Source of the DNA: a bacterium
GTDB lineage: Bacteria > CLD3 > SB21
Length of the DNA: 36,982 bases
Reading direction: 5' to 3'
Assembly: GCA_019695335.1 (NCBI GenBank)
Contig: JAIBAF010000037.1
Location: 1 to 36,982 of the forward strand
How positions within the stretch are numbered: the stretch's first letter is position 1; each line of letters opens with the position of its first letter. Below, in pieces: positions 176 through 35,710 of this stretch. The position numbers and the translations under genes were made by a program. The notes beneath the pieces are model-generated. The model worked only from the letters and a program-made list of their open reading frames with translations, ran no database searches and was not told where the DNA came from.

Positions 176-185
176 AGGTTTGAAA

Positions 186-902
186 ATGATTCAGTTATTC
201 AATAAACGCCAATCCGCAATCGGCAATCGGAAGTTCTTCCTTACACTTTTTTTGTGTTTTTTGCTGGGTTGGGTTTCGATAGCGAAGGCGGGCGTTTCTG
301 AAAATGATCTGAAGGGATTATTGGAAAAGCTTCGTGTCTTAAGCGGTATTCCAAATATACAGCAGGAACTTATCGTCGATCCGGTGATGTCGAGAGGATA
401 TGCCGCAATCACATGGGACGGCGTGAAAGCGACGATCTACGTGCATCCTACCGCGATGAACCGCGAGTCGCTGAATAGCTGGGCGTTTGTGCTGGGTCAT
501 GAGATCGGACACCAGGTGCTCAATCATTCCGGAAGAGGCGGCTCCCAGGAAGAATTTGCGGCGGATATCTGGGGCGGACAATTAGCGATAAAAGCGGGAT
601 TCGATCCAAAACCGTACATCCTCGCCATGTTTTCGAGACCCAATAGCTGCAGCGTCAGTCACGGCTGCTGGCATACGCGGGCGGAGAATCTTGAAAGCGG
701 ATTGCATGTCCAGGTCGAAAGACCGGCCACTTACACGAGTTATTCGCCGACGTTGGGTTACGAAGATCACACGAACTGTGAATGCCACGGCACGCACGTT
801 CAAGCTATGGGACCGAATATTCCGGTCGTGACAATTAAAAGCATGATTTCGCTGCAAGGTTATGAATATGTGCAATCAACGGGATGCATTATTTCTCAAT
901 AA
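186..902 (+). CDS. Secreted HExxH zinc metallopeptidase
   Basis: A 238-residue exported protein, predicted to be a zinc peptidase acting outside the cytoplasm. A signal peptide covers about residues 1-36: Arg/Lys near 8-16, a Phe/Leu-rich core, then a VSIAKAG-type cleavage region. The motif HEIGH is at 105-109, with a further His a few residues on, and a downstream E-F-A-A-D at 123-127 supplies a plausible third zinc ligand, as in gluzincin-type enzymes. The C-terminal half is Cys-rich, suggesting disulfides. ATG 186 is preferred over TTG 180 because a GAGG lies about 8 bases upstream. It reads in the same direction as the fibre and Rhs genes, so a role in processing those exported proteins is possible but unproven. 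The exact peptidase family is uncertain. Confidence 0.75.
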   Translation: MIQLFNKRQSAIGNRKFFLTLFLCFLLGWVSIAKAGVSENDLKGLLEKLRVLSGIPNIQQELIVDPVMSRGYAAITWDGVKATIYVHPTAMNRESLNSWAFVLGHEIGHQVLNHSGRGGSQEEFAADIWGGQLAIKAGFDPKPYILAMFSRPNSCSVSHGCWHTRAENLESGLHVQVERPATYTSYSPTLGYEDHTNCECHGTHVQAMGPNIPVVTIKSMISLQGYEYVQSTGCIISQ

Positions 903-1003
903 ATAATGAGCAATCAACAATGAACAGAGCAGTGAACAGTAATGAGTTAGCAAGACACCATGCTCAAAATCTCAAATCCTCAATTGTCAATCTTCAATTC
1001 AAA
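903..1003. repeat. Degenerate heptamer-phased intergenic repeat
   Basis: The sequence between the metallopeptidase and the first fibre gene consists of loosely repeated 7-nt words such as AACAATG, TGAACAG and CAATTCAA. Its last 40 bases, up to the start codon, closely match the bases before the second fibre gene at about 3350-3394. The duplication of that gene therefore included its leader. Confidence 0.5.
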
Positions 1004-1012
1004 AGGTTTGAT

Positions 1013-2920: not shown

Positions 2921-2956
2921 TGAATAATGAGTAATGAACGATGAACAAAAAGAAGG
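2921..2956. repeat. AATGA-type degenerate repeat after fibre copy 1
   Basis: Immediately after the stop codon the sequence runs through several near-copies of AATGAATAATGAGTAATGAAC at about 7-nt spacing. The words match those at 132-175 and 903-1003. It begins the 474-base gene-free stretch before fibre copy 2. Confidence 0.4.
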
Positions 2957-3014
2957 TCATTGAGCGAAGTCGAAACGACATCTTAGCGAGACTCATTTCG
3001 ACTACGCTCAATGA
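2957..3014. repeat. 22-bp inverted repeat (REP-like palindrome)
   Basis: Arms at 2957-2978 and 2993-3014 pair with two mismatches around a 14-base spacer. The arm core TTGAGCGAAGTCGAAA resembles short palindromic intergenic repeats common in many bacteria. There is no T-run after it, so a simple terminator is less likely than a dispersed REP-type element, though an RNA hairpin would certainly form. Confidence 0.55.
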
Positions 3015-3029
3015 GCAATGAACAATCAG

Positions 3030-3312
3030 CAGCCAAGTCCTTAACGTAAGCGATGAGGTTTCAAACGTGGATAATGAAGTTTCAGACATAAAGTGATGAG
3101 GTTCTAACCATGAGCAATGAGGTTTCAAACGTAGATAATGAAGTTTCAGACATAAAGTGATGAGGTTCTAACCATGAGCAATGAGGTTTCAAACGTGGAT
3201 AATGAAGTTTCAGACATAAAGTAATGAGGTTCTGAACGTGAGTAATGAGGTTTTTAACGTGAATAATGAGGTTTCATGCGTAAGTAATGAGGTTCTAAAC
3301 GTGTTCGATAAA
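3030..3312. repeat. Four tandem 64-bp repeats with ~21-nt sub-units
   Basis: Copies start at 3057, 3121, 3185 and 3249, each exactly 64 bases, with a partial degenerate unit before 3057. Each begins GGTTTC or GGTTTT and is itself made of three related sub-units of about 21, 22 and 21 bases around ATGAGGTTTCAAACGTG. Copies 1-3 are nearly identical and copy 4 is diverged. Stops occur in the frames I read, and no gene is seen in 2921-3394. The 21-nt sub-unit is three times the 7-nt phase of the neighbouring repeats. Confidence 0.8.
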
Positions 3313-3394
3313 GTTTTAATTTAAAAGCAATGCAATACGTACCAATTCAATCTCAAATTCTCGATCGTCAATCTTCAATTCAAAGGTATTGGAT

Positions 3395-11900: not shown

Positions 11901-14417
11901 TCGACGCAGGCCAATGATCCTGCATGGCCTTCGACGCCAACTACGTGGCGCAAAAAATATTATTTTGACTTCGACCCGTCGGTCATGTCGAGCCCAGTCG
12001 AGACGCGACCGACGAAGGGCCGTCTCGTCAAAGTTCAAACCAACAACGATACGGACAACGAACTTGAAGTCGAAGAAACGTTCACGTACGACGCTCTCGG
12101 ACGACTTACACTAAAAACCAACCGCGTTACCGATTTCGATAACCAGACGTATGTTACGACATACGAATACGATCTTACCGGGAATGTCACGAAACTTATT
12201 TATCCTTTTGCTTTCACGAGCGGTACGCTTGATCTTACCGGAACCATTTCCGGTTCTTATGGGGCTGACAGTATTCATATCAGTAATGCGACCGGTTCCG
12301 GTTCCGTATCCATGCAAGCAACCAAAGGCATTTTACTGTCGGCAACGTTCAATTCCAGCGGCGCGACAATGTCCTTCAAGCCGAATGCCTTAAGTGGTAG
12401 CGGTGGTGGAACAATCGATCCGAATGCAACGGTCGTGACGTACACTTACAATCATCTTGGCCAATTAGTCAGCATCGGCGATGCTGCCGATCCGGATAAA
12501 TATGCGGCATATACGTATCGCGTCGATGGGGCGATGGCAACAGAAAAGTTGAATAATAGCTCAATAAATCGTAGTTTTACTTACGAATCGCAGGGGTGGC
12601 TTAAACAAATCAGCGATTCGTATTTCACAGAGACGATTGATTACACTTCTGGCGGGTATGGCGGTGTAGGATATTTTAATGGAAATATATCAAAGGCTAC
12701 ATTTATGTATGCCACTTTGAATTACAATTACACATTCAAGTATGACAACCTGAATCAACTGCAAGTTGCCGATCACTCGAGTAATCCTAATGGCGACATC
12801 GGCGTCGGTGAAGAAATGCGCTACGATGCAAATGGAAATATTACTAAAATGAAAGTGAACTCTACAACGAAAACCTATGCATATTACACGAATACGAATA
12901 AAGTTCAGAATGTCGATGGCAGCGGGAATGACTACGTTTACGATCAAATAGGGAATATCACGCAATCGATTCCGAAATCGATCAATGCATTGACATATGA
13001 TCCATTCGTAAATCGTACGAAAACGGTCTCCATGAGCAGCGGGAATTCGATGAATATGTCGTATGACGGCACTGAGAGAAGAGTTTATCGAAAAGACATC
13101 GTATCGGGCGTGACTACGGAAGTGCTTTACTTGCACGATGGAATGAATGCGATCATAGAGAAAGACAAGAATGGCAATTCAACGGAATATGTATATGGGC
13201 CTACCGGAATTATTTTTATAAAGACAGCCACACAGACGAATTATGTATTGAAAGATCATTTGGGATCGATACGAGCCACGATTAATACGGCGGAGTTGCC
13301 GTATGCGGCTGTAGGATATGACTATAGCGCATTTGGTACGATTTTGAGCACGGTTTCAAATTCGGGGTATTTCTACACGGGTCAGGAATACGACAAAACT
13401 TCAGGTCTGCATAATTTCAAGGCGAGGATGTATGATAGTGATTTAGCGATGTTTTATGGAGTAGATGTAGCGGAACAATTTTCATCGCCATATGCATACT
13501 CTGGAAATAATCCTGTGATAATGGTCGATGAAGATGGTAATTTTGCTTTTATTCCTATATTAATTGGCGCAGCGATTGGAGGATATAGCGGATTTCAAAT
13601 TGGGAAAGCGAGTCATGCTAAAGGATGGGAGATGTTTGGATACATAGCTGGAGGCGCATTGATAGGAGGATTTTCTGGACATATTGGCGCAGAAATAGCT
13701 GCAAGTGGCGGCGCATTTTCTCAGACATCTTCGATTGCTGTCAGTTCGTATGTAAACTCTTCAGGGATGAATATGTTAAGTGGTGGAAGAACGGGCGTTC
13801 AAATTAGTTTTGGAGTTGCTTCATATAATTTGGGTACAGGTGACTTCGGATATCTAGGCGAAAAAGGAAATTCCGCTATGGAAAACGTCGGTTATGGTTT
13901 AGGAACATTCGCTAATGTTGCTGATATTAATCGTATCATCAACAGTACAAATGCGACGCTATACACAGAAAAAAACGATGCAATTTCACATAACGCCATT
14001 GCTGACGAAAAAGGGAATAGCCTAATGTCATATGGTCCAAATGATGATAAATTTAGTGCGGATAATTTTAAAACAGATATTATCGATTCAAAAGGTGGGA
14101 CAATGCGAGACATTGGAGCATATAAGAAATTTGGTTTAGCATTTCGAAAAAGCACATCTGATTACCAGATATACAAAGATATGCCAGTTAATGTTACAGT
14201 GAATAAGTATACGATTAATCTTGTTCGAGCTATGGGAAAAATGCTTCCTTATCAAGGTGCCACCATCAATTGTTCAAATATGGCTTCATTATCATTATGG
14301 CTCAACGGTATACCAAACATTGGAATACATCCTTATTTATTATATGCAACAACTAAGGCTTATGCATTAGGCATAAGGCCAGATTTGTTTTCCTATAATT
14401 TAACCAAACATTATTAA
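5958..14417 (+). CDS. Sec-exported Rhs/YD-repeat polymorphic toxin
   Basis: A 2819-residue protein and the only full-length Rhs gene here. A Sec signal peptide covers residues 1-24, ending KALAQ. The N-terminal region resembles other secreted FCB Rhs proteins (VNLYTGDVNLPMNL). Jelly-roll or LamG-like modules are suggested near 1195-1370 and 1445-1570. YD repeats run from about 1877 to 2300, for example YDDFGRLTTIY and YDALGRLTLK. The Rhs core (LKDHLGSIRATIN) is near 2431 and the core ends with GNNPVIMVDEDGN at about 2528. The expected DPxG self-cleavage motif is DEDG, keeping Asp but lacking Pro. The last ~290 residues are a Gly-rich linker and a toxin domain with His2678 (SHNAI) and Asn2771-Cys2772 (INCSNMAS). 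That His-then-NC order fits a permuted papain/LRAT-like fold, which is inference. No Shine-Dalgarno is obvious. Confidence 0.9.
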   Translation: MKKIIIHSVRFLFLVTIAVKALAQTDLSSSAPKINTFALNPDLKGMVGNSVNLYTGDVNLPMNLINLPGRNGLDVNVTAMYSSNVQNQVGTWNLEAPTGILGLGWSMDYDRIIVDHKNTGSRHDDEFYLVSGGSSNLLVRTGTDGDGSYIYETKNYQFWKIKYVPNLLRWEITKEDGSVFIYGGKKTVLGNSQASVRNSIQWTVKWGNWIGSSVDTTAQEELPVGWNLTTIRNIWNDSTLFEYDEITERVGKKIISPDFSHYTKASYLSKITDTYGRYIVFNYSEKTENVEYQDPHTEDSEPDAYQERFETRYLDSVDVFNENNTKLLSIDFGYGFLGSGDLTKRLLTSITQKNGAGESLPNMKFNYYPSGTTAGMLNTITFPLGGTATYSYTQKTIGYSDRELTITAPSGYSEPRVWLADDYAVVTWRKTGDSLKVFAYVWDGRWVDCGQLLQTGGINKIDDKQDFEIEIQKDFFALLTEYHSKSASKYLHVFRKNVSRSNAWDYSNFTLDVVDINDNNIHFMSGKDYITVLAAESGKMFRYKWAGNSWNLTTDGPFHNDQRHHFWGAGGYNYFIYHNQNEILTTCGGLPCYQDADDVINIYYLDETGNWNVKTLNSSYGFDTDGGGDNPTYWYPGGSFVGAMLDEIDSRIYWWDENFNVTQAPAQISYVDENSKVFLTNEMITIVNSNDAAYKTSYLGRFNGSSWNVLDIGHFLSQVVSSGLDFGFSNDNYHNRNTFDPNTNSYNLYTDIGVNGIPVAGSNFCIRYSLGQVSWLFSKKNQSGNWSDTQYNLNTGVYWAATCQNGFMLEDADSPHNSYFVQLKNGQIGTSFSFDNRKILPHFSSSFPQQPFLVSAKSIVTYNSADYLNEATELRLHREINFQISEMITDFPCTSVSISDGYETTVTGYAYNENTATYDPSGTVAQYNEVTVKPDNSTAFGYTKTYFVNGLPDNTIGFNQPFPGSTIDNNYGLLKGLPYYSAVYKTGDTLISSTTTDYAVYTKTLGSKDQGVYFRQSSQTTMKDGVSSSATYNYLTDSGLLSSTVTSTYDAGGAVDNITQYNRYWYEAYDPTKTLNLLTPVVQNKTLVNSQWANSSATTWKDWGSGKWAPHKSYVMDVQGGNPDYAFSSYSGSNEPPSGWLKTSEIIERTAKGAVTMTKDIDGVVSSAIYDYQYEAPVASFGNARISQTALGSEASYINFESNSTMSGIKENDYWTLSGGNSFSSDAHTGQYSLKINGGSPTYGPIRDFLPPDLTGQGRKYIVSCWVKTQAGFASGQGWIVLHTKHNSDGDHSLYPNISGASVVKYIGDTQGQWQYVEIVVDLGKVRQDGGISSGELLRLRAYFANYDPSHYMLIDDIRVSPYESPFSGASYEKTYGSPIGSIGANGESGKSVYDQFQRPFGAIANDSLVSGFSAMYYSRVGHSDAFSNSDPNSSISVSARGRGLMDDFNDTDLNGWTVSSGSWSATSGMLVSNSGEITLNNSGPSEYAVRLKTRGTGNGGFKVGSQSFTRSWSKEEDWLIVVTGSSVWFYVNGQRITTGTATGDFKLTSSGTGTTYDDVFYLKNPSIAMTYIDGSGKTRQSQIWDIDSIIVTQPVYDKLGRAAVASKPAKVSAGFGYRSGFCSFDWNTTVMSGEVATYHSGDAGYCYTRTIFENSPLSRTIETGLPSATFNAGSGHTNRVAYGKNVNGDNFRDDLPVNQYFMQTLTDPNGVIGKVITTKDGKTVSKQSGPITGPGGISPMTLNIEFGELTYAPNNDSAIIKENVNQAAYDPSGQFIPNFTHQVSWSCTISGGRYQFSDNPPKYTNYTAYFTITGSTGGTIVSRQHTGAGSLSDNGTFTAQAGVTYTVSITGNATYSWGQAEVDYQSVGETAFYPTTSYVYDDFGRLTTIYPPNYYNSPTGSGGSSYIVTMQYDFLGRMTQKTTPDAGTTKFMYDKAGRLRFVVDANGDAQSPDNIMYYKYDVYGRKIEEGYYAYNWTSLSSTQANDPAWPSTPTTWRKKYYFDFDPSVMSSPVETRPTKGRLVKVQTNNDTDNELEVEETFTYDALGRLTLKTNRVTDFDNQTYVTTYEYDLTGNVTKLIYPFAFTSGTLDLTGTISGSYGADSIHISNATGSGSVSMQATKGILLSATFNSSGATMSFKPNALSGSGGGTIDPNATVVTYTYNHLGQLVSIGDAADPDKYAAYTYRVDGAMATEKLNNSSINRSFTYESQGWLKQISDSYFTETIDYTSGGYGGVGYFNGNISKATFMYATLNYNYTFKYDNLNQLQVADHSSNPNGDIGVGEEMRYDANGNITKMKVNSTTKTYAYYTNTNKVQNVDGSGNDYVYDQIGNITQSIPKSINALTYDPFVNRTKTVSMSSGNSMNMSYDGTERRVYRKDIVSGVTTEVLYLHDGMNAIIEKDKNGNSTEYVYGPTGIIFIKTATQTNYVLKDHLGSIRATINTAELPYAAVGYDYSAFGTILSTVSNSGYFYTGQEYDKTSGLHNFKARMYDSDLAMFYGVDVAEQFSSPYAYSGNNPVIMVDEDGNFAFIPILIGAAIGGYSGFQIGKASHAKGWEMFGYIAGGALIGGFSGHIGAEIAASGGAFSQTSSIAVSSYVNSSGMNMLSGGRTGVQISFGVASYNLGTGDFGYLGEKGNSAMENVGYGLGTFANVADINRIINSTNATLYTEKNDAISHNAIADEKGNSLMSYGPNDDKFSADNFKTDIIDSKGGTMRDIGAYKKFGLAFRKSTSDYQIYKDMPVNVTVNKYTINLVRAMGKMLPYQGATINCSNMASLSLWLNGIPNIGIHPYLLYATTKAYALGIRPDLFSYNLTKHY

Positions 14418-14422
14418 AAAAA

Positions 14423-14848
14423 ATGAGAACACTAATAGTATTGATGCTGATTTTAAGTTCAACATGTGAGAATGTTAATCAAAATATGTCGACAGGAGAC
14501 AAGGAATTGTATATTTTTGAATATCCAGGTAAAATTTCAGGGCAAACGATAATTGGTTTTATAGAAACCTTCGATTCAATTGCGATACAAATCTCCTTTA
14601 AAATCTCATTTTCAGAAAACATGATTCGTAGTATAAAAGTGGAATTGAATAAGAGCCATTATAAGTATTCAAGAACTGAGGATAGAAATATTTATGTTAT
14701 CGGTTTGCATCTTAACGGCTTTAGGAGTGAAGATTTTAGCAAAAGAAAATTGAATTCGGATTCATTTTACAAATTACTTTCTATTGATTTTTTAGATATT
14801 AATAACAACGAAAGATTTAGAATTTTGCAGAAAAAATCAAAACTTTAA
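14423..14848 (+). CDS. Putative immunity protein for the main Rhs toxin
   Basis: A 141-residue protein starting 5 bases after the Rhs stop. The N-terminus is a short hydrophobic signal followed by SSTC, a weak lipobox with Cys near residue 15, so it may be an exported lipoprotein. The rest is beta-rich in appearance with no family I recognise. It is visibly more AT-rich than the Rhs core. Position directly after a toxin C-terminus, small size and lack of conservation with the other array genes are the basis for the immunity call. Its 3' end abuts the next Rhs core fragment. Confidence 0.65.
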   Translation: MRTLIVLMLILSSTCENVNQNMSTGDKELYIFEYPGKISGQTIIGFIETFDSIAIQISFKISFSENMIRSIKVELNKSHYKYSRTEDRNIYVIGLHLNGFRSEDFSKRKLNSDSFYKLLSIDFLDINNNERFRILQKKSKL

Positions 14849-14868
14849 GCCTCATTGATACAACTTTT

Positions 14869-14982
14869 GGCAGCGGAAATGATTATGTTTACGATCAAAT
14901 CGGGAATATCACGCAATCAATTCCGAAATCGATCAATGCACTGACGTACGATCCCTTTGTAAATCGGACAAAGACTATTTCC
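14869..14982 (+). pseudogene. 5' part of orphan Rhs core fragment, cassette 2
   Basis: Rhs-core coding sequence in frame with the cassette 2 gene but without an ATG, GTG or TTG. Homology begins abruptly at GGCAGCGG (14869), which corresponds to 12919 of the main gene. The reading frame is open back to 14821, inside the immunity gene, where it meets TAG. It encodes YVYDQIGNITQSIP and onward. This shows the cassette is a 5'-truncated copy rather than an independent gene with its own start. Confidence 0.75.
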
Positions 14983-16404
14983 ATGAGTAGCGGAAATTCG
15001 ATGAATATGTCGTATGACGGTACTGAGAGGAGAGTTTATCGAAAAGACATCGTATCGGGTGTGACCACAGAAGTTCTATACCTGCACGACGGAATGAATG
15101 CGATCGTGGAGAAAGACAAGAATGGTAATTCGACGGAATATGTATATGGGCCTACCGGAATTATTTTTATAAAGACAGCTACACAGACGAATTTTGTATT
15201 GAAAGATCACTTAGGATCGATACGAGCCACGATTAATACTGCGGAGCTGCCCTATGCGGCTGTAGGCTATGACTATAGCGCATTTGGTACGATTTTGAGC
15301 ACGGTTTCAAATTCAGGATATTTCTACACGGGTCAGGAATATGATAAGACTTCAGGTCTGCATAATTTCAAGGCGAGGATGTATGATAGTGATTTAGCGA
15401 TGTTTTATGGGACGGATCCGGCAGGGCAGTATTCATCGCCTTATACTTATGTCGGGAATAATCCGGTTATACGAAGAGACCCGAGTGGTAATTTTTCTAT
15501 TAAATTTGATTTTAAGAACTTGATTCCAGGGTATGCTGTTTATTCGTTTGGTAGAAATATTGTAAGCGCATACAACAATGCTGGCGGAGGGCTTTATGGG
15601 ATAGGAATGGCTTTTTCTGTAGCAAATAGATCGATTATCAGCGCTGGTTATGCTTACGTAATACAGGGTGTAACCGGACAATATTTACCAATAATTGGAA
15701 TTGAGGGTGGGTTACCAAAAGAGATTATTACTGGAGCAGCAGGAGGGGGTGCAGCAAGCGCTCCAAGTGGCAGCAACTTTTTGAATGCAGTTGCTCAAGG
15801 TGCTGCCTTGAATGGTGCGAGTGCAATTGCAGGTCGTTTTTTTTCAAGAACGGTCGCAGCACTAAATGAGAGTATAAATAGTAGTAGTAATAATCAAAAT
15901 TTTGTTCCTCCTGATCCAGAGTTTGCTAACAAAGCCCTTGAAGAAATGAAATTATATGGTGGCGAAGAAGGCATATTACAATATGAAGAGATAGTGACCA
16001 ATAACACCGCTATAAAGATAAATAACGAAATTAAAACATATGCGCAATATGAGGCTTATGACTCCTGGTGGAATTTTGTAATTGGAAGAAAGGACCCTGC
16101 AATTTATCTTAATGCCAGCCGTCTGTTTAATCCAACATTGGACGTAGAAACTTGGAATAGTGTGGGTATCAGTTCTTATGATTATTTGTCAAAAACTGTA
16201 GAAGCGTTGTATCATGAGTCAGGCCATTTGTACGGATTGCCATCATATGTTAATGGAGTAATGAAACGACTACCTAATGCTCAAATCACTCATGGCTTCA
16301 ATTCTCACACAATGTTTCAGTATCCTATTGGTGAATTAACTAAAGCATGGTTACAAAACGTATTTGTACCTAATTTACATAAAAGTGGAGTTATTTGCAG
16401 ATGA
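14983..16404 (+). CDS. Orphan Rhs-CT cassette 2: HESGH metallopeptidase toxin
   Basis: Up to 473 residues if read from ATG 14983, but with no Shine-Dalgarno and no signal peptide, so probably silent unless recombined into the main gene. Residues 1-170 are Rhs core, nearly identical to the main protein and ending RRDPSGN with an intact DPxG motif. Residues 171 to about 300 are a linker (NLIPGYAVYSFGRN, then Gly/Ala-rich) shared with cassette 5. The C-terminal domain carries HESGH at 411-415, a zinc-peptidase signature, and ends IGELTKAWLQNVFVPN. That domain is homologous to cassette 4. The stop overlaps the immunity start (ATGA at 16401-16404). Substrate unknown. Confidence 0.8.
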   Translation: MSSGNSMNMSYDGTERRVYRKDIVSGVTTEVLYLHDGMNAIVEKDKNGNSTEYVYGPTGIIFIKTATQTNFVLKDHLGSIRATINTAELPYAAVGYDYSAFGTILSTVSNSGYFYTGQEYDKTSGLHNFKARMYDSDLAMFYGTDPAGQYSSPYTYVGNNPVIRRDPSGNFSIKFDFKNLIPGYAVYSFGRNIVSAYNNAGGGLYGIGMAFSVANRSIISAGYAYVIQGVTGQYLPIIGIEGGLPKEIITGAAGGGAASAPSGSNFLNAVAQGAALNGASAIAGRFFSRTVAALNESINSSSNNQNFVPPDPEFANKALEEMKLYGGEEGILQYEEIVTNNTAIKINNEIKTYAQYEAYDSWWNFVIGRKDPAIYLNASRLFNPTLDVETWNSVGISSYDYLSKTVEALYHESGHLYGLPSYVNGVMKRLPNAQITHGFNSHTMFQYPIGELTKAWLQNVFVPNLHKSGVICR

Positions 16405-16787
16405 AGGATTTTATTGTTGATACCCTATTGCTTTCTCCTTTCTGGAGAGCTGAATTAATTGGTTTCGTGATTTTAAATCTCTTTTTCTTAACAATGTTTA
16501 TTTATGTTGTAAGATATAAAGGCTCTGGTAATTTAGCCGCTCTTTTTTCAATGTTGTATCAACATAGTAGTTTGGCATTCATTCTTTTTTTCGGATTAAT
16601 CCCACGCTTATATGGACTTTATGTGACCGCATTGGGTAACGTCTTTGTAACTGAAACTGCAATTTTTGCTATATATTCAACATTAATGTCGATGGCTCCT
16701 TTAGTAATTGAAATTATAATTATAATGTTTTTCAACGTTTTTTTTCAAACACGTTTAACTTTTCTGAAAAGACGCCTGAGTAAGTGA
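16401..16787 (+). CDS. Membrane immunity protein for cassette 2
   Basis: A 128-residue protein with three or four transmembrane segments (near 16-38, 55-80 and 84-117) and a basic C-terminal tail. ATG 16401 overlaps the toxin stop as ATGA, implying translational coupling; TTG 16395 is a less likely start. It resembles the immunity gene of cassette 4: both begin with an (S/N)PFW region followed by hydrophobic helices, and both end with EI(I/M) helices and a basic (T)RL tail. Matching toxin domains thus have matching immunity families. A membrane location suggests that the toxin is neutralised at the inner membrane. Confidence 0.7.
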   Translation: MKDFIVDTLLLSPFWRAELIGFVILNLFFLTMFIYVVRYKGSGNLAALFSMLYQHSSLAFILFFGLIPRLYGLYVTALGNVFVTETAIFAIYSTLMSMAPLVIEIIIIMFFNVFFQTRLTFLKRRLSK

Positions 16788-16796
16788 TTCAGTAGA

Positions 16797-17302
16797 TTGT
16801 CACTTTCTACTTTTTTACCTTCACGAGTGGTACTGAGCTATTTCCGGCGCCGTATTCATGCAGCAACCAATTTGAATTACAATTACACATTCAAATACGA
16901 TAATCTGAATCAATTGCAAGTTGCCGATCACTCGAGTAATGTCAATGGCGATATCGGCGTCGGTGAAGAAATGCGCTACGACGCGAATGGCAATATTACT
17001 AAAATGAAAGTCAATACGGCGACGAAGACCTACGCGTATTACACGAATACAAATAAAGTTCAGAATGTCGACGGCAGCGGAAATGATTATGTGTACGATG
17101 CAATTGGGAATATCACGCAATCGATTCCGAAATCGATCAATGCACTGACGTATGATCCGTTTGTAAATAGAACGAAAACTATTTCCATGAGTAGCGGGAA
17201 TTCGATGAATATGTCGTATGACGGTACTGAGAGAAGAGTTTATCGAAAAGACATCGTTTCAGGCGTGACTACGGAAGTGCTTTGCCTGCACGATGGGAAT
17301 GA
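16797..17302 (+). pseudogene. Frameshifted, mosaic Rhs core fragment, cassette 3
   Basis: Rhs core sequence corresponding to main-gene 12711 onward (YTFKYDNLNQLQVADH). It is preceded at about 16810-16870 by short scraps resembling main-gene 12207-12230 (TTCACGAGTGGTAC) and about 12300-12325 (CATGCAGCAACCAA), so the 5' end is a deleted mosaic. Relative to the other copies there is one extra G near 17297 (GATGGGAATG) and one extra T near 17310 (GCGATTCG). Together they move the reading into another frame, so the core and the cassette 3 C-terminus cannot be one protein as written. Confidence 0.8.
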
Positions 17303-18631
17303 ATGCGATTCGTGGAGAAAGACAAGTCAGGTAATTCGACAGAATATGTATATGGACCTACCGGAATTATTTTTATAAAGACCGCCACACAGACGAATTT
17401 TGTATTGAAAGATCATTTAGGATCGATACGAGCTACGATTAATACGGCGGAGTTGCCCTATGCGGCTGTAGGCTATGACTACAGCGCATTTGGTACGATT
17501 TTGAGCACGGTTTCAAATTCAGGGTATTTCTACACGGGTCAAGAGTATGATAAGACTTCAGGTTTGCATAACTTCAAGGCGAGGATGTATGATAGTGATT
17601 TAGCGATGTTTTATGGAGTGGATGCTGCGGGGCAAACAAATTCGCCATTTGCCTATGTGGGAAATAATCCTGTCATCAGGAAAGACAAAGACGGGAATTT
17701 CTTTTTTGTTCCTATTTTAATTGGCGCAGCAATTGGAGGTTATTCAGGTTATCAAATAGGAAAAGCAAAAGGAGCTAAAGGTTGGGATATGTTTGGTTAT
17801 ATAGCGGGCGGTTCCTTAATTGGTGGCTTATCTGGTGGCGCTGCGGCAGGAATGAGTGCGGCTGGAGGAGGAGCTCTTTTGTCAGGAGCGTCAGCAGGTG
17901 CGGTAGGAGGCGCTGGCTTTAATGGTTTGGCATCGAATTGGAAAACTGGAGCGATGCTAAATGGAGCTTGGAAGGGCGCATTGTCGGGCTTTGTGAGTGG
18001 CGGAGTTGGTTCGGCAATAGGGGGCGGCTCGGGTGCGTTTGCAGGTGGTGCAGTCGGTTCAGGATTGAATACGGCATTGAATGGTGGAAAAGGCAGGGAT
18101 ATTATTAGTTCAATGGCTACTGGCGGTGCATTGTCATATGGGACCTATGAGTTGAGTTCATACGTAAATTGGAAGTACGGAGGTGGTAATAATCTTGGAG
18201 GCCACAAACTTTCTTACACACAATACAAAACTATGCAAGCAGATTTTCAGAGATCGGCGTTTTGGGGCAAAGAATACGGTGGATTTTTAATGAAAGACGG
18301 AAGTGTCCAAAGGCTCCCAGCTCAATTCTCTCACGGTCTTGGAGAAATTAACGTTCCTGCGGAGGCAGATGGATTTTATCATACGCATTGGGATAGCGAA
18401 GGTCAAACATTTTATATTGATCAAAATGGACAAAAAATAGAAACTGGATTTAGTGGAAAGGCATGGGAATTAACAACAACTCGTGATCATTCACCAAGTG
18501 AATATGTAAATGTCGACAGCTATGTAGTCAACAGATATGGACAAGTTTCGGTTCATCTCGCGGGATTTGATAATCATCATCTTTTCAACGATCCGTTTTT
18601 GCGATATTTTCCATGGTTTATTTGGCCATAA
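17303..18631 (+). CDS. Orphan Rhs-CT cassette 3: JAB/JAMM-like toxin
   Basis: A 442-residue frame starting after the core frameshift; no signal peptide, likely silent. Residues 1-132 are Rhs core ending RKDKDGN. Residues 133 to about 290 are a Gly-rich linker beginning FVPILIGAAIGGYSG, clearly related to the main Rhs linker. The C-terminal domain has Glu324 in a KEYGGF context, H360-T-H362 and S397-P-S-E400, followed by SYVVNRYGQ. That order (E, HxH, SxxD/E) matches JAB/MPN metallopeptidases of the DUF4329-like type found in Rhs proteins; the usual Asp is replaced by Glu, which might weaken metal binding. The following gene, 22 bases on, is the presumed immunity. Confidence 0.75.
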   Translation: MRFVEKDKSGNSTEYVYGPTGIIFIKTATQTNFVLKDHLGSIRATINTAELPYAAVGYDYSAFGTILSTVSNSGYFYTGQEYDKTSGLHNFKARMYDSDLAMFYGVDAAGQTNSPFAYVGNNPVIRKDKDGNFFFVPILIGAAIGGYSGYQIGKAKGAKGWDMFGYIAGGSLIGGLSGGAAAGMSAAGGGALLSGASAGAVGGAGFNGLASNWKTGAMLNGAWKGALSGFVSGGVGSAIGGGSGAFAGGAVGSGLNTALNGGKGRDIISSMATGGALSYGTYELSSYVNWKYGGGNNLGGHKLSYTQYKTMQADFQRSAFWGKEYGGFLMKDGSVQRLPAQFSHGLGEINVPAEADGFYHTHWDSEGQTFYIDQNGQKIETGFSGKAWELTTTRDHSPSEYVNVDSYVVNRYGQVSVHLAGFDNHHLFNDPFLRYFPWFIWP

Positions 18632-18652
18632 TATAAATGAAATGGAGGCAAC

Positions 18653-19087
18653 ATGTTGATTAAAAGTATTATAATAAAATGTTCACTTGTATTCTTCTGT
18701 TACATTACAACATCATGCTTGAAGCCCAGTACATCACACGGTGATTTAAAACGAAATAGTATAGTCGTTGATTCTGTATCTGTCAAGGAATTTGGTGAGA
18801 AAGTTAGTCAAAGGTTCGCAGATTATCAAGCATCGTCAAAGGGAAAGACCTTTAAAGCAATGGTTAGCGGTAAAATTCGTGGTTTAGTATTTAAACATTC
18901 AATCCCCAAGGATGTAACTCTTGTACTTTATACATATGATGAGCAAGATTCGTGTGTACTTTATAGTGGACAATTACCATCCGGTGAGTCATTTTTAAAT
19001 GCCCTGAATTTACCAATTCCAGTAGGGGATTATTATGTTTTCGATGGCGGGCACAAGATTCCCTTTATGCGTATAAAAGATCAGTAA
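18653..19087 (+). CDS. Lipoprotein-like immunity protein for cassette 3
   Basis: A 144-residue protein with a strong GGAGG at 18644-18648, 5 bases before the ATG, the best ribosome site in the array. A hydrophobic signal (about residues 5-20) ends in TTSC, a lipobox with Cys near 22, predicting export and lipidation. The mature part has no family I recognise; its C-terminus reads as small beta-strands (VGDYYVFDGGHKIPF). It directly follows the JAB-like toxin domain. Periplasmic anchoring suggests that the toxin is met outside the cytoplasm. Confidence 0.65.
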   Translation: MLIKSIIIKCSLVFFCYITTSCLKPSTSHGDLKRNSIVVDSVSVKEFGEKVSQRFADYQASSKGKTFKAMVSGKIRGLVFKHSIPKDVTLVLYTYDEQDSCVLYSGQLPSGESFLNALNLPIPVGDYYVFDGGHKIPFMRIKDQ

Positions 19088-19235
19088 TTCATCATTTTTT
19101 TTCAAACTTATTTCTGCCTTTTATCTTGGCGGGGTTGTTCCAATCGCGTAAAAAATGTCGATGGCCTGCGAACAACTCCTATGTCTATGACAACATCGGA
19201 AATGTAACGCAGTCTGTTCCAAAGGCATTAACGCA
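19088..19235 (+). pseudogene. Degenerate 5' Rhs core scrap, cassette 4
   Basis: Rhs homology resumes at AATGTCGATGGC (19154-19165), equivalent to about 12910-12920 of the main gene, and reads SYVYDNIGNVTQSVPK. It is more diverged than the other copies. A missing base near 19223 breaks the frame before TTG 19236. Bases 19088-19153 between the immunity stop and this point show nothing recognisable. Confidence 0.65.
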
Positions 19236-20666
19236 TTGACGTACGATCCCTTCATCAATCGTACAAAGCAAATCGCGATGGCCAACAGCAATCAAATGCA
19301 GATGAATTACGATGGGACGGAGAGACGTGTTTATAAAAAAGACATCGTATCGGGCGTGACCACGGAAGTGCTTTACTTGCACGATGGAATGAATGCGATC
19401 GTGGAGAAAGACAAGAATGGTAATTCGACGGAATATGTATATGGTCCTACCGGAATTATTTTTATAAAGACAGCTACACAGACGAATTTTGTATTGAAAG
19501 ATCACTTAGGATCGATACGAGCCACGATTAATACTGCGGAGTTGCCTTATGCGGCTGTAGGATATGACTATAGCGCATTTGGTACGATTTTGAGCACGGT
19601 TTCAAATTCAGGGTATTTCTTCACGGGTCAGGAATACGACAAGACTTCAGGTTTGCATAATTTCAAAGCGAGGATGTATGATAGTGATTTAGCGATGTTT
19701 TATGGTGGCGATCCTGCGGAGCAAGGAAACTCACCATTTGCGTATGCCGGAAACAACCCAATTATGCGAGTTGATAAAAACGGAAAATTTTGGATGGCTG
19801 TTCTGGCTGCTGCTTATGTAGGAGGATATTGGGGAGGAGTACGCGCTCATGAAAGTCATACAAATATTTGGGAAGGAATCATCACAGGTGGAGTCAGTGG
19901 TGCTGCTGGAGGGGCTACTGGTGCCGCTTTTGGAAATGTTTATGGAATAGTTTCTAATGGAATAGTTGGTGCAATCAGTGCGGGAATTTCATCAAGTGTA
20001 AATGCGGCTATAACCGGACAAAATACAAACTCAATTGGAAACGATATTCTGAAAGGAGGAATTACTGCTGCTGCATTCTCAGCCATAGATATAGGGACAT
20101 CATTGTTAGCGAAAGGTCAACAGAATGACATCGGTTATTTTGAAGGTCAAGGAAAAATTAGCGATCCTGATTTTGTTGGAAAAGCTCTAAATTCCATGGA
20201 AACAAATGGCGGGCAAAGTGGTAAGGTACAGTCTAAATTACTAGAGGAAAAAGCTAAAATTGGATTTACCAACAGTAAAATGGTTTCATTGGCTCATACC
20301 GCAATAGTACCCAAAACTTGGAAGGATGCCTTGTTCGGTGGTTTGTTTTTTGAAGCGGAATTAATTCCCTATATTGAACTAAAACCTCAAAATATTTTTG
20401 ATCCACATTATAAAGCAGATAAATGGTTGGAGGCTGGTATAGATCCAAGCGATTATATTTCAAAAACCGTCGAAATTCTTTATCATGAATCTGCTCATGC
20501 CTTTGGTTTATTTGATTTTTCTCCTAAGTATGGACCATATCGATATTATTCTCCTTCAGAGTTGGATCACCATAGTATGAACTACGAGATATGGGATCAC
20601 AAAATCGGGCAGTTGACAAAAAATTGGATAATGAATGTTTATTTACCAAACAAAAACGGATATTAA
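19236..20666 (+). CDS. Orphan Rhs-CT cassette 4: HESAH metallopeptidase toxin
   Basis: A frame of up to 476 residues from TTG 19236 with no signal peptide; probably silent. Residues 1-184 are Rhs core ending RVDKNGK; the first ~25 residues come from a diverged core type (MANSNQMQMNYDGTE), after which it matches the others. The linker (AAAYVGGYWGGVRAHE, then Gly/Ala-rich) is unlike the other four. The C-terminal domain carries HESAH at 417-421 and ends IGQLTKNWIMNVYLPN, homologous to cassette 2 but well diverged. The immunity gene begins 2 bases after the stop. Predicted zinc peptidase; target unknown. Confidence 0.8.
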   Translation: MTYDPFINRTKQIAMANSNQMQMNYDGTERRVYKKDIVSGVTTEVLYLHDGMNAIVEKDKNGNSTEYVYGPTGIIFIKTATQTNFVLKDHLGSIRATINTAELPYAAVGYDYSAFGTILSTVSNSGYFFTGQEYDKTSGLHNFKARMYDSDLAMFYGGDPAEQGNSPFAYAGNNPIMRVDKNGKFWMAVLAAAYVGGYWGGVRAHESHTNIWEGIITGGVSGAAGGATGAAFGNVYGIVSNGIVGAISAGISSSVNAAITGQNTNSIGNDILKGGITAAAFSAIDIGTSLLAKGQQNDIGYFEGQGKISDPDFVGKALNSMETNGGQSGKVQSKLLEEKAKIGFTNSKMVSLAHTAIVPKTWKDALFGGLFFEAELIPYIELKPQNIFDPHYKADKWLEAGIDPSDYISKTVEILYHESAHAFGLFDFSPKYGPYRYYSPSELDHHSMNYEIWDHKIGQLTKNWIMNVYLPNKNGY

Positions 20667-20668
20667 TT

Positions 20669-21079
20669 ATGGACTATTATATTCTTTCGTATTTTGATTT
20701 TTTATCTCAAAACCCTTTTTGGTTTCGTGAAATTTTGTGGTTTAGTATCACTAGTTTTGTGTTAATTGTTAATACAATTTATTTTTTTTTCTTCAGTAAA
20801 ATTCCAACCGATAAAAAATTTCAATTGTTTAAGAATTATTATTTTGGAGTTTCAGCGTTTTATTTTTGTCTGATTCTTTTATTTAACTTGAGCAATTTGG
20901 AAGAAATGACGCATCAACATTCTTTTACTTCAAGCGATGCCTTGACATGCCTCTATATGGGTTTGATTATTATTGGTTGTCTAATTTATGAAATCATGTT
21001 CTTAATAATATTTTATTTACTATGTTTAGTTTTTTTTACTATAAGGCTTCGTGATGAAAAAAATGTACCAAGGAGATAA
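20669..21079 (+). CDS. Membrane immunity protein for cassette 4
   Basis: A 136-residue, very AT-rich gene with three or four predicted transmembrane helices (around 18-42, 56-76 and 97-128). ATG 20669 lies 2 bases after the toxin stop; the frame extends upstream to 20591 but that would overlap the toxin by 76 bases. It is related to the cassette 2 immunity protein by its NPFW start, helix layout and basic tail. Function inferred from position and from the matching toxin family. Confidence 0.7.
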   Translation: MDYYILSYFDFLSQNPFWFREILWFSITSFVLIVNTIYFFFFSKIPTDKKFQLFKNYYFGVSAFYFCLILLFNLSNLEEMTHQHSFTSSDALTCLYMGLIIIGCLIYEIMFLIIFYLLCLVFFTIRLRDEKNVPRR

Positions 21080-21236
21080 CTAAATAAAATAATTGGTATT
21101 CTCATTTTGCAGTTTAGCTACAATTCATTTGAGTGGCCGGATATTTTAATGGAAATATATCAAAGGCTACCTGAATCATCTGCAAGTTGCCGATCACTCG
21201 AGTAATCCTAATGGCGACATCGGCGTCGGTGAAGAA
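21080..21236 (+). pseudogene. 5' Rhs core scrap with 49-bp deletion, cassette 5
   Basis: From about 21133 the bases match main-gene 12670-12702 (GGATATTTTAATGGAAATAT), then jump at GGCTAC to the equivalent of about 12751 (CTGAATCA), removing 49 bases. As 49 is not a multiple of three, this shifts the frame. No start codon lies in the downstream frame before ATG 21237. Bases 21080-21120 show nothing recognisable. Confidence 0.75.
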
Positions 21237-22892
21237 ATGCGCTACGACGTGAATGGCAATATTACTAAAATGAAGGTCAATACGACGACGAAGACGTACG
21301 CGTATTACACGAATGCGAATAAAGTTCAGAATGTCGACCGCAGCGGGAATGACTACGTTTACGATCCAATCGGGAATATCACGCAATCGATTCCGAAATC
21401 GATCAATACACTGACGTATGATCCGTTTGTAAATAGAACGAAAACTATTTCCATGAGTAGCGGGAACTCGATGAATATGTCGTATGATGGCACTGAGAGA
21501 AGAGTTTATCGAAAAGACATCGTATCGGGCGTGACCACAGAAGTTCTATACCTGCACGACGGAATGAATGCGATCGTGGAGAAAGACAAGAATGGCAATT
21601 CAACGGAATATGTATATGGGCCTACCGGAATTATTTTTATAAAGACAGCTACACAGACGAATTTTGTATTAAAAGATCATTTAGGATCGATACGAGCCAC
21701 GATTAATACTGCGGAGTTGCCTTATGCGGCTGTAGGCTATGACTACAGCGCATTTGGTACGATTTTGAGCACGGTTTCAAATTCAGGGTATTTCTACACG
21801 GGTCAGGAATACGACAAGACTTCAGGTCTGCATAATTTCAAAGCGAGGATGTATGATAGTGATTTAGCGATGTTTTATGGAGTAGATGCTGCTGGACAGT
21901 ATGCAAGTCCTTTTGCATTCGTCGGTAATAATCCTATAACTAGACGAGACCCTAGCGGAAACTTTTCATTTGATTTGAAGAATTTAATACCAGGTTATAG
22001 CGTATATTCGCTTGGTAGAAATATTGTGAGAGCTTACAATAATGCCGGTGGCGGTTTGCATGGAATTGGGGAAGCTTTCTCAGTCGTAAATAGAACGATT
22101 ATCAGCGTCGGAGCCAGTGTAGCGGTGGGGGGTGTCACAGGAAATGTATTGGCTGGAGCCGGAATTGCGGAAGGCGGTTTTTTAAATATGGCCGGATCAG
22201 GAGCCGCTGGCGGTGCTGCCGGTTCTGCAGCGGGAGGAGGCAATATTGGCGATGGCGCGATTAGTGGAGCGATTGGTGGAGCAATTGGATATGGCGCAAA
22301 TCAAATTTTGAATTTCGTTCAACATAGAAATCCCAATGAATTTATGAGTCAAACCACCACGAATGGTAACTCAGAAACAAATCCAAGTGAATTAGAGTTG
22401 CACGAATACGCTGAAAAAAAGTTTGGAGCCAAAGAAGGAGAATTTGCTGTAAATAGACTATACCTAGCATCAGAATCGCAAGTTCCGCCTGGCTGGAGGT
22501 ACACAGAAAGTAGTTTATTAGGTAATCAGCCAAATTGGTTTAAAAGATTTTTATTTGGAGAAATAACCGCCTTAGGAGTTACTCGACCATCATCAATTAG
22601 TGGCCTTGCAGATATTTGGATTGCCCCTGCGGCATTTGCTTCACCGGAGCAATTATATTATACGGTAGGGCATGAATTGATTCATGCTTACCATATTCAT
22701 ATTAATAATGGCTTACTCGATGTCTACAAAAGTGAACATGCCGCATATCTATGGATGTATCAAAAAGCAATATTTTATCGCGATATGGATATTGCCCGCG
22801 AAGCTTTTCAGTCGTGGCAATATTATAAATCGTATTCAGGTTATCCATATCCAGGCTCAAGCTCATGGAGCGCTCCTTGGCATGGATTTTAA
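21237..22892 (+). CDS. Orphan Rhs-CT cassette 5: HELIH metallopeptidase toxin
   Basis: A 551-residue frame from ATG 21237, within former core sequence and without signal peptide or clear Shine-Dalgarno. Residues 1-242 are Rhs core ending RRDPSGN, with an intact DPxG motif. The linker (NLIPGYSVYSLGRN) is shared with cassette 2, followed by a Gly/Ala-rich stretch. The toxin domain carries HELIH at 479-483 and Glu500 in SEHAAY, which fits a gluzincin-type zinc site. It is not obviously related to the HESGH/HESAH domains of cassettes 2 and 4. The C-terminus is rich in Tyr, Pro, Ser and Trp. A lipoprotein immunity gene follows after 25 bases. Confidence 0.8.
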   Translation: MRYDVNGNITKMKVNTTTKTYAYYTNANKVQNVDRSGNDYVYDPIGNITQSIPKSINTLTYDPFVNRTKTISMSSGNSMNMSYDGTERRVYRKDIVSGVTTEVLYLHDGMNAIVEKDKNGNSTEYVYGPTGIIFIKTATQTNFVLKDHLGSIRATINTAELPYAAVGYDYSAFGTILSTVSNSGYFYTGQEYDKTSGLHNFKARMYDSDLAMFYGVDAAGQYASPFAFVGNNPITRRDPSGNFSFDLKNLIPGYSVYSLGRNIVRAYNNAGGGLHGIGEAFSVVNRTIISVGASVAVGGVTGNVLAGAGIAEGGFLNMAGSGAAGGAAGSAAGGGNIGDGAISGAIGGAIGYGANQILNFVQHRNPNEFMSQTTTNGNSETNPSELELHEYAEKKFGAKEGEFAVNRLYLASESQVPPGWRYTESSLLGNQPNWFKRFLFGEITALGVTRPSSISGLADIWIAPAAFASPEQLYYTVGHELIHAYHIHINNGLLDVYKSEHAAYLWMYQKAIFYRDMDIAREAFQSWQYYKSYSGYPYPGSSSWSAPWHGF

Positions 22893-22917
22893 ATTTATTT
22901 CAATGGATTTATAAAAA

Positions 22918-23400
22918 ATGAAAAAAATTATATTAATAAGTTTGATTAATACGCTCTTGTCTTGTTCTTCGCAAGAAGAAAAAGTCGTGACTCAAGGTAT
23001 TACAGATTTAATTAAGTATGAAATTAAAGGAAACGACTCATTGCTCTATGCCATGGAAAACATTTATTTTCTACGACAAGAAGAACCAGTATGGTGCATT
23101 GGATTAGTTAGCGATAAAGTTTTGGACAAATTAAACCATACATTTAGTGATAACAGAATATTATTATATAGATATACTGAGATGGATTATGATGAATTGG
23201 GCACGATAGTTTTAAAGGGTACTACAATGAAGGGAACATTGTTGTCAATTCGAGATATCCAATGGAAATCTGAAAACGAAGTTTTCTTATTAGTGGGTCA
23301 TTCATTTTCAAAGCAAAGTTTTGCAGAATTTCAATTATTATTGATAAAAAGCGATGGAATTTGGAAGACTCAAAAAATCGAATTGGTTTCAATCATGTAA
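22918..23400 (+). CDS. Lipoprotein immunity protein for cassette 5
   Basis: A 160-residue protein with a textbook short lipoprotein signal: MKKIILISLINTLLSC, Cys at 16. The mature protein is charged and AT-rich in codon choice, ending KIELVSIM, with no family I recognise. It follows the HELIH toxin directly and is the last intact gene of the array. Immunity is inferred from position, and periplasmic location from the lipobox. Confidence 0.7.
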   Translation: MKKIILISLINTLLSCSSQEEKVVTQGITDLIKYEIKGNDSLLYAMENIYFLRQEEPVWCIGLVSDKVLDKLNHTFSDNRILLYRYTEMDYDELGTIVLKGTTMKGTLLSIRDIQWKSENEVFLLVGHSFSKQSFAEFQLLLIKSDGIWKTQKIELVSIM

Positions 23401-23496
23401 ACTAGAATTTCAGCTAAGTGAATGGATGAAATACTGCGTTGAAAAAATCAAAAATTATTCTATGATTCAAAAGTATCACTAAAAATCTAGAATCAA

Positions 23497-23560
23497 GACG
23501 ACAACGAAAACCTACGCATATTATACGAATACGAATAAAGTTCAGAATGTCGATGGCAAC
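23497..23560 (+). pseudogene. Terminal Rhs core remnant
   Basis: Sixty-four bases matching main-gene sequence from about 12860 to 12922, coding for KTYAYYTNTNKVQNVDG. It begins near CGACAACG and ends at GTCGATGGCAAC, one base before the stop codon (23562-23564, minus strand) of the acetolactate decarboxylase gene. Bases 23401-23496 before it contain no gene that I can see; CTAGAAT occurs at 23402 and again near 23488. Confidence 0.8.
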
Positions 23561-33987: not shown

Positions 33988-33992
33988 AAACT

Positions 33993-34023: not shown

Positions 34024-34050
34024 AAAATTCCGTTAGCTTATAAAAATAAA

Positions 34051-34557: not shown

Positions 34558-34592
34558 ACACGAAAAACTTTGCAGCTTATGGTAAAGAACAA

Positions 34593-35699: not shown

Positions 35700-35710
35700 T
35701 CAAATCTCCA

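What the first reader, a model, noticed from the sequence alone, without database searches (positions are those of the whole stretch)
12919..23560. Tandem store of four silent Rhs C-terminal toxin/immunity cassettes behind one Sec-exported Rhs gene
The sequence shows a full Rhs gene followed by four 5'-truncated copies of its core, each fused to a different C-terminus with its own small neighbour gene, and a terminal remnant. Orphan Rhs-CT modules are established in enterobacterial rhs and contact-dependent inhibition loci, where they recombine into the main gene. Here the host protein carries a Sec signal rather than a type VI N-terminus, and the set is built mainly from predicted peptidases. 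Inference: a switchable toxin repertoire in a poorly studied phylum.
Basis: partly seen in the sequence, partly recalled or inferred. Interest (0 to 1): 0.9.

Follow-up and report, generated by a model that had tools for sequence, protein, structure and literature searches.

The report
Rhs gene with spare toxin tips
A little-known bacterium carries one complete gene for a large secreted toxin-carrier protein followed by four partial copies that each hold a different likely toxin tip with its likely antidote, an arrangement already known from other bacteria but here in a new lineage, apparently with a different export route.

Summary
One 2819-aa Rhs gene with a Sec-type start (5958-14417) is followed by four core fragments, each fused to its own C-terminus (CT) and followed by a small gene, and by a CT-less remnant. 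The copies are 86-100% alike (60-bp blocks) across most of a 369-bp core block, then diverge abruptly. Cassette c3 is a recombinant (0 of 2000 permutations reach its breakpoint score). All ten core pairs have dN/dS of 0.06 or less: the cores diverged as working coding sequence, most simply inside full-length genes. CTs are modular: c1's toxin family sits on two pre-toxin modules, and on the main gene of a relative, G004. At another locus two congeneric genomes share the Rhs gene up to the core, then carry dissimilar CT/immunity pairs. The genome has the T9SS translocon SprA and no T6SS VipB. This is C-terminal displacement with a recombinable cassette array, known from enterobacteria, Neisseria and bee symbionts. 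New member of a known kind.

The parts
884..5917 (+). two paralogous NVGIGTTSP-repeat, tail-fibre-like proteins (884-2920, 3389-5917) just upstream of the Rhs gene; possible partners, not proven; the label is recalled, no Pfam family was hit
   Evidence: the same kind of gene lies upstream of the Rhs gene in G004 (one gene between) and L043
5958..14417 (+). main Rhs gene, 2819 aa, N-terminal Sec-type signal sequence (by eye), RHS/YD repeats, Rhs core, pre-toxin module type alpha and toxin T1
13091..13459 (+). 369-bp core block shared by all five copies; likely recombination substrate; identity collapses right after 13459
14423..14848 (+). immunity candidate of main CT, lipoprotein-like (lipobox-like Cys)
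   Evidence: 5 bp after main stop
14868..16404 (+). cassette c1: core fragment + pre-toxin beta + zincin-like toxin T3 (HESGH); ORF from ATG 14983
16401..16787 (+). c1 immunity candidate, polytopic membrane protein, homologous to c3's
   Evidence: overlaps c1 stop by 4 bp
16867..18631 (+). cassette c2: core fragment with frameshifts near 17.28-17.30 kb, open from 17303; pre-toxin alpha + toxin T2
18653..19087 (+). c2 immunity candidate, lipoprotein-like
19154..20666 (+). cassette c3: divergent left part with a frameshift, recombination breakpoint near 19337, then standard core block, pre-toxin gamma + zincin-like toxin T3 (HESAH)
20669..21079 (+). c3 immunity candidate, polytopic membrane protein, homologous to c1's and to the gene after the G004 main gene
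21139..22892 (+). cassette c4: 32 bp identical to main 12669-12700 joined to core from about 12746 (deletion scar), then core, pre-toxin beta, toxin T4 (HELIH)
22918..23400 (+). c4 immunity candidate, lipoprotein-like
23474..23558 (+). terminal core remnant (26 residues aligned), no CT

Best explanation
The locus is a polymorphic-toxin Rhs system. The long Sec-exported Rhs protein carries the toxin currently in use at its C-terminus; the four downstream fragments are orphan CT/immunity cassettes. New CT/immunity pairs, probably from diverged relatives, enter by homologous recombination in the conserved core (about 370 bp; in c3 a breakpoint is visible at its left edge) and push the previous tip downstream (C-terminal displacement). 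A second joint lies after the pre-toxin module, so toxins with their immunity genes also change pre-toxin modules. Orphans lack an export signal and, in c2 and c3, an open upstream core, so their toxins should not be exported unless the core block recombines with the main gene again; their immunity genes could still protect. All five immunity candidates look membrane- or lipid-anchored, so the toxins probably act in the envelope of rival cells. Shown: anatomy, recombination in c3, selection on cores, module exchange, CT difference at a syntenic locus in relatives. Inferred: silence, antagonism, envelope target, direction of transfer, export by T9SS.
For: Five core copies with different CTs. 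Sharp breakpoint in c3: mismatch to the consensus of the other copies 0.37 left versus 0.035 right, LR 50.3 versus maximum 11.5 in 2000 permutations. Core block (121 codons) dN 0.000-0.021, dS 0.166-0.393, dN/dS 0.00-0.06 in 10 of 10 pairs; private non-synonymous changes no higher in orphans (c1-c4: 0, 2, 1, 0) than in main (2). Toxin T3 in c1, c3 and on the G004 main gene, with pre-toxin beta in c1 and gamma in c3 and G004; beta carries T3 in c1 and T4 in c4; 0 of 300 shuffles reach these scores. Downstream genes c1I-c3I and c3I-G004 are similar beyond shuffles (0 of 500 reach the score, each). G005 and G006 (same genus): Rhs gene 87.6% over 370 aa, then no similarity at E 1e-4 in CT or downstream gene; flanking gene 100% over 244 aa. 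SprA present, VipB absent. Salmonella precedent: 522 bp at 95% identity between main and orphan, with evidence for their recombination (PMC3967940, passages).
Against: No same-species strain, reads or RNA data, so no rearrangement was observed at this locus. The G004 relation is family-level: core 59% (110/187) and T3 28-30% identical, so it shows a shared toxin family, not a recent swap with this genome; G004 has no orphan core (1 match). Only c3 shows a clear breakpoint. c1I versus the G004 downstream gene is not significant (7 of 500 shuffles reach it). The pre-toxin types are not wholly separate: main, c2, c3 and G004 are distantly similar to each other (0 of 300 shuffles reach the scores in all six of those pairs). 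In the C34 array the main-orphan pair was saturated at synonymous sites and so was the G003 pair, so the young, similar block is not general. The G005 gene is cut by its contig end and the G006 gene lies in three frames. Immunity function, toxicity and envelope target are unproven; anchoring is by hydropathy and lipobox-like motifs. Two downstream genes in the C34 array look soluble (by eye). The main protein shows no T9SS sorting domain in the NCBIfam scan.
Confidence: 0.75

Rival explanations
1. One reading: a standing store from which the cell itself repeatedly switches its main toxin by intragenomic recombination, reversibly, as a regulated or frequent process.
For: The core block is long and similar enough (86-100% by 60-bp block over most of it) for recombination like the 522 bp/95% case in Salmonella (PMC3967940, passages); all four cassettes keep an open frame from the block (c2: from 17303) to the CT stop; c3 is a recombinant.
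Against: dS of 0.17-0.39 between cores means the copies have not been homogenised recently, so frequent exchange is unlikely; no inverted copy in the window (both strands) and no recombinase family among the 20 window proteins scanned with Pfam (four further ORFs at 33397-36853 not scanned); no strain data. A simple crossover would delete the main immunity gene (the point is made in PMC3967940) and any cassettes in between.
Confidence: 0.3
2. Immunity archive: displaced cassettes are kept mainly because their immunity genes protect against relatives still using the old toxins; the toxin fragments are passengers on their way to decay.
For: Frameshifts in the c2 and c3 cores and a CT-less remnant at the far end; precedent in Vibrio immunity arrays (PMC5361080, passages) and an expressed orphan CdiI in E. 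coli EC93 (PMC3150448, passages).
Against: All four orphan CT frames are open to their stop and the cores show dN/dS of 0.06 or less; passengers should decay before the immunity genes do. No promoter signal could be shown: promoter-like sites 28 versus 31.5 expected.
Confidence: 0.4
3. Orphans are expressed in place, as internal toxin-antitoxin pairs or as toxins delivered in trans.
For: All four orphan ORFs contain an ATG start; an orphan rhs gene beside a full-length one in Salmonella is reported under the title 'RHS-elements function as type II toxin-antitoxin modules' (PMC7043789, search listing and start of abstract only).
Against: No signal peptide at any orphan start (by eye), the starts lie inside core sequence, and the upstream frames of c2 and c3 are broken.
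Confidence: 0.1
4. Recent tandem duplication of one gene with decay, or an assembly artefact.
For: Direct tandem repeats in a 130-contig draft genome.
Against: The copies end in mostly unrelated toxins (only c1 and c3 related), core dS is 0.17-0.39 with strong constraint, and long Rhs genes with nearby core fragments appear in other genomes.
Confidence: 0.03

Closest known systems
Enterobacterial rhs loci with orphan rhs-CT/rhsI pairs (Poole 2011 PMC3150448; Koskiniemi 2014 PMC3967940; passages seen)
   Same: Full rhs gene, downstream fragments with partial core, variable CT and small downstream gene, long stretch of near identity with main
   Different: Here Sec-type N-terminus and no T6SS VipB in the genome; different phylum; CTs without a Pfam family above cut-off
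Neisseria MafB loci with silent mafB-CT cassettes (PMC4287609; passages seen)
   Same: Signal-peptide toxin, CT cassettes some of which lack a start codon, each with immunity gene, same CT found on the full-length gene of other strains
   Different: MafB has a DUF1020 N-terminus, not an Rhs; strain-level evidence exists there and not here
T9SS-associated polymorphic toxins of Bacteroidetes: TANFOR proteins (PMC7073777) and Apibacter Rhs with SpvB/TcdB domains next to T9SS genes (PMC8125069); passages seen
   Same: Genome with T9SS, toxin tip at the C-terminus, downstream immunity gene; Sec signal peptide on most TANFOR toxins; the TANFOR paper also notes toxin domains encoded by the next gene downstream
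   Different: T9SS export is a hypothesis there too; the passages I saw neither state nor exclude an Rhs core-fragment array in Apibacter
C-terminal displacement arrays in bee symbionts and Vibrio (PMC8125069, PMC5361080; passages seen)
   Different: T6SS-linked; the Vibrio arrays keep mainly immunity genes, here the CT frames are kept as well

Membership tests
Rhs polymorphic toxin with orphan CT array | RHS/YD-repeat protein with Rhs-associated core | tested here: met
   TIGR03696 52.2 bits (cut-off 32.5), PF05593 36.4 (cut-off 22) in the main protein; TIGR03696 in all four cassettes
Rhs polymorphic toxin with orphan CT array | Downstream fragments sharing part of the core, then a different CT | tested here: met
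Rhs polymorphic toxin with orphan CT array | Each CT followed by a cognate immunity gene | tested here: inconclusive
   position met in 5 of 5; similar downstream genes follow similar T3 toxins in two of three pairings; protection not tested
Rhs polymorphic toxin with orphan CT array | Same CT family found on a full-length gene elsewhere | tested here: met
   T3 on the G004 main gene, found in 2 of 386 genomes, the own one included. Not met for the other three toxins: main, c4 and c2 found in the own genome only, 1 of 386 each
Rhs polymorphic toxin with orphan CT array | CT inhibits growth of bacteria | not testable with these tools
   no experiment
T6SS Rhs effector | T6SS sheath gene in the genome | tested here: not met
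   PF05943 VipB: 0 matches in G000; of 14 control genomes only E. coli rings. One marker only
T9SS cargo | T9SS translocon in the genome | tested here: met
   TIGR04189 SprA, 607.8 bits on the best stretch, cut-off 200; 0 of 14 controls ring. Other T9SS components not tested
T9SS cargo | C-terminal sorting domain on the protein | tested here: not met
   no sorting-domain family among the NCBIfam hits of P0001 at E 0.1; the C-terminus is the variable CT
Zincin metallopeptidase toxin (c1, c3, c4) | HExxH motif | tested here: met
   present in 3 of 5 CTs; shuffles of those three CTs show it in 0.3-1.2%; HES[AG]H kept in c1, c3 and G004
Zincin metallopeptidase toxin (c1, c3, c4) | Family match or fold | tested here: inconclusive
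   only sub-threshold Pfam hits (c1: Metallopep 0.0066, M66 0.0097; c4: SprT-like 0.048, M76 0.25; c3: none); the c1/c3 AlphaFold model is unusable, mean pLDDT 32.5

The most novel reading that the evidence does not exclude
A two-joint combinatorial toxin store outside the T6SS world: a Sec-exported (possibly T9SS-delivered) Rhs protein, in a genome without the T6SS sheath gene, whose core, pre-toxin module and toxin-immunity pair are exchanged independently, with cassettes cycling through the main gene of related strains often enough to keep their cores under protein-level selection.
Probability: 0.3. Interest if true: 0.65.

Novelty: new member of a known kind. Interest (0 to 1): 0.42.

Why it matters
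It extends orphan Rhs toxin arrays to a phylum with nine held genomes, in a genome with a T9SS translocon and no T6SS sheath gene, which would help make testable whether T9SS-bearing bacteria use Rhs proteins as antibacterial weapons. The core dN/dS suggests that orphan cores can be read as records of recent service in full-length genes, a simple test that could be applied to other arrays. The module map (toxin and immunity move together, pre-toxin moves apart) gives concrete joints to look for.

Tried and rejected
AlphaFold models of the c1/c3 zincin (2-sequence alignment) and of the main CT (single sequence) were unusable (mean pLDDT 32.5 and 28.8), so no fold search was run. PDB sequence search with the c1 CT gave one chance-level hit, leucine aminopeptidase at E 0.93; the other CTs were not searched there. 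PADLOC: no hit for the 5 proteins given. Plasmid tblastn with the main and c2 CTs: no match; c1, c3 and c4 were not tried. Promoter and terminator scan: at or below chance (28 versus 31.5; 4 versus 6.2), so it says nothing about silence. A run-length test for gene conversion gave uncorrected p below 0.01 for three of ten pairs (c2-c4 0.0001, c1-c3 0.0094, main-c2 0.0097) and 0.047 for c1-c2; I rely on the c3 breakpoint instead. Recent tandem duplication was rejected by the CT differences and the core dS.

Dropped rows and errors: the G004 CT was cut at a wrong NNP motif, so its pre-toxin rows there are invalid; redone. Of 11 core pairs in other arrays, 6 were scored, 2 were saturated (C34 main-orphan, G003), 1 G048 pair had no open frame in both copies, and 2 G006 pairs were set aside (one repeat without an open frame, one pair of recombinase-like genes). 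The scored G048 copy 10095-10508 had two stops in the compared frame. The query typed has one wrong residue (99% identity to its own gene). A c2 'JAB-like' reading from an HTH motif is recalled, has no hit and is not claimed.
Full report
What is there. The window is the whole of contig C37 of a 3.76-Mb, 130-contig genome. A 2819-aa Rhs gene (5958-14417) begins with a Sec-type signal sequence (MKKIIIHSVRFLFLVTIAVKALAQ, read by eye; no signal-peptide predictor was at hand) and hits PF05593, TIGR01643 and TIGR03696. Downstream lie four partial copies of its core (c1-c4) with different C-termini and a terminal 85-bp remnant. Each CT ends at, or within 25 bp of, a small gene (gaps 5, -4, 21, 2 and 25 bp). 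By hydropathy and lipobox-like motifs three of these small proteins look like lipoproteins (main, c2, c4) and two are polytopic (c1, c3).

Recombination. In the alignment of the five copies, the core block runs from about main position 13091 to 13459. Identity there is 86-100% by 60-bp block from alignment column 501 on (columns 441-500, which straddle the c3 breakpoint: 82-87% for pairs with c3, 90-95% for the others) and falls to 51-73% in the 45 columns right after it, in all ten pairs. c3 changes abruptly from 37% to 3.5% mismatch against the consensus of the others near main 13091 (LR 50.3; 0 of 2000 permutations reach it; maximum 11.5). c4 starts with 32 bp identical to main 12669-12700 joined to sequence from about 12746, a deletion scar. 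c3 has its frameshift upstream of the block and c2 has frameshifts within the first part of it, so of these two only the remaining part of the block and the CT read as one open frame.

Selection. In the block (121 codons) all ten pairs have dN 0.000-0.021 and dS 0.166-0.393, dN/dS 0.00-0.06. Private non-synonymous changes are main 2, c1 0, c2 2, c3 1, c4 0. The orphan cores thus diverged while constrained as protein. The simplest account, an inference, is that each was, until recently on this time scale, part of a full-length gene, probably in other strains, and was then displaced or imported. In other arrays 6 of 11 core pairs could be scored: dN/dS 0.017, 0.064 and 0.119 (C34), 0.072 (G005), 0.051 and 0.075 (G048, the latter with two stops in one copy). 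Two were saturated (C34 main-orphan, G003), one G048 pair had no open frame in both copies, and two G006 pairs were not Rhs cores.

Modules. Comparing CTs with shuffled controls (300 each): the closest pre-toxin pairs are main-c2 (50/90 identical), c1-c4 (63/106) and c3-G004 main gene (46/120); toxins are shared by c1, c3 and G004 (49/166, 47/168 and 52/165) but not by c1 and c4 (221 of 300 shuffles reach the score) or by main and c2 (200 of 300). So the same toxin family sits on two pre-toxin modules and one pre-toxin module carries two toxins. The types are not wholly separate: main, c2, c3 and G004 pre-toxins are distantly similar in all six pairs, and G004-c4 just exceeds its shuffles. The downstream genes follow the toxin: for c1I-c3I and c3I-G004 0 of 500 shuffles reach the score, while c1I-G004 does not pass (7 of 500). 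The core-to-pre-toxin and pre-toxin-to-toxin borders therefore look like two separate exchange joints.

Relatives. Nine genomes of the phylum are held, the own one included. The main gene's N-terminus is found in 2 of 9, the own genome and G004 (57%); the one other genome of the same genus, G001 (91% complete), shows no match. G004 has a single full-length gene (2905 aa) with a T3 toxin and no orphan core. At a different Rhs locus, G005 and G006 of one genus (G006 with 9% contamination) share a flanking gene (100% over 244 aa; 93.8% DNA) and the Rhs gene (87.6% over 370 aa), but the CTs and downstream genes show no similarity at E 1e-4, and the orphans behind them differ. The G005 gene is cut by its contig end and the G006 gene lies in three frames. 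The own genome has a second array on C34, with a 2270-residue main frame and five core fragments. A Balneolaceae genome (CP030887, L043) has a related main gene with no second core found in the 27.9 kb held. Toxins searched in 386 genomes each: c1's in 2 (own and G004), main's, c4's and c2's in 1 each (own); c3's was not searched separately but is a hit of c1's.

Export. SprA of the type IX system is present and the T6SS sheath protein VipB is absent, one marker each, in this genome only. The main protein shows no sorting domain, so T9SS export is an inference. Rhs proteins with SpvB/TcdB N-termini next to T9SS genes have been noted in Apibacter (PMC8125069, passages) and T9SS export was proposed for TANFOR toxins (PMC7073777, passages).

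Toxin identity. HExxH occurs in c1, c3 and c4 (3 of 5; shuffles of these CTs contain it in 0.3-1.2%), with HES[AG]H kept in c1, c3 and G004. Pfam gives only sub-threshold hits and structure prediction failed. 'Zincin-like' is a motif-level statement; the main and c2 toxins have no assignment.

Comparison with the known. Orphan rhs-CT/rhsI fragments behind a main gene, evidence for their recombination through 522 bp of 95% identity in Salmonella, C-terminal displacement, and potentially silent CT cassettes behind signal-peptide toxins in Neisseria are all published (PMC3967940, PMC3150448, PMC8125069, PMC5361080, PMC4287609, PMC3482391; passages seen). What is particular here is the lineage, the non-T6SS context, the two-joint module exchange and the core dN/dS argument. 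Of my six paper searches, three bear on this (15 of 46, 12 of 44 and 12 of 27 papers listed), and no listed title or abstract start describes such an array in a T9SS-type bacterium. That is a weak negative: the lists were capped, most subscription papers are not held, and the Apibacter paper may hold such cases in parts I did not see.

Verdict. The stronger claim of a self-switching repertoire is plausible but untested; displacement by incoming tips, with immunity kept, explains the data at least as well. New member of a known kind, moderate interest.

Noticed in passing
window 884-5917 and 3049-3303: Two adjacent tail-fibre-like NVGIGTTSP proteins share a 91% identical 850-bp 5' part and an 89% 294-bp 3' part with different middles, and a short tandem repeat lies between them; this too looks like a recombining surface-protein pair. 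Similar genes lie upstream of the Rhs gene in G004 and L043.
   Followed up: partly
L039:1479-20000 and L040:1-1531 (contig C34): Second Rhs array in the same genome with a 2270-residue main frame and five core fragments with different continuations, separated in part by other genes; two downstream genes look soluble rather than envelope-anchored (by eye).
   Followed up: partly
window 12909-12921 versus 14868, 19154, 23558: Three cassette boundaries fall within 13 bp of the main gene (c1 start 12917, c3 start about 12909, remnant end 12921). Whether this marks a preferred breakpoint or is chance is unexplained.
   Followed up: no
window 180-902: Small M48-like peptidase gene (Pfam 26.1 bits, cut-off 20.3) near the start of the contig, upstream of the tail-fibre-like genes.
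   Followed up: no
window 23562-24254, minus strand: Alpha-acetolactate decarboxylase-like protein (PF03306 41.6 bits) with a lipoprotein-like start (by eye), right next to the array end, followed by genes with CusB/HlyD, ACR_tran and OEP hits that look like a metal RND efflux operon.
   Followed up: no
L047 (G006:C443), about 11.6-13.6 kb of the reversed locus: Two genes (366 and 327 aa) with an HTFRH.CATH motif, recalled as typical of tyrosine recombinases and not tested, lie between the G006 Rhs gene and its orphan; possible mobility of the cassette region.
   Followed up: no
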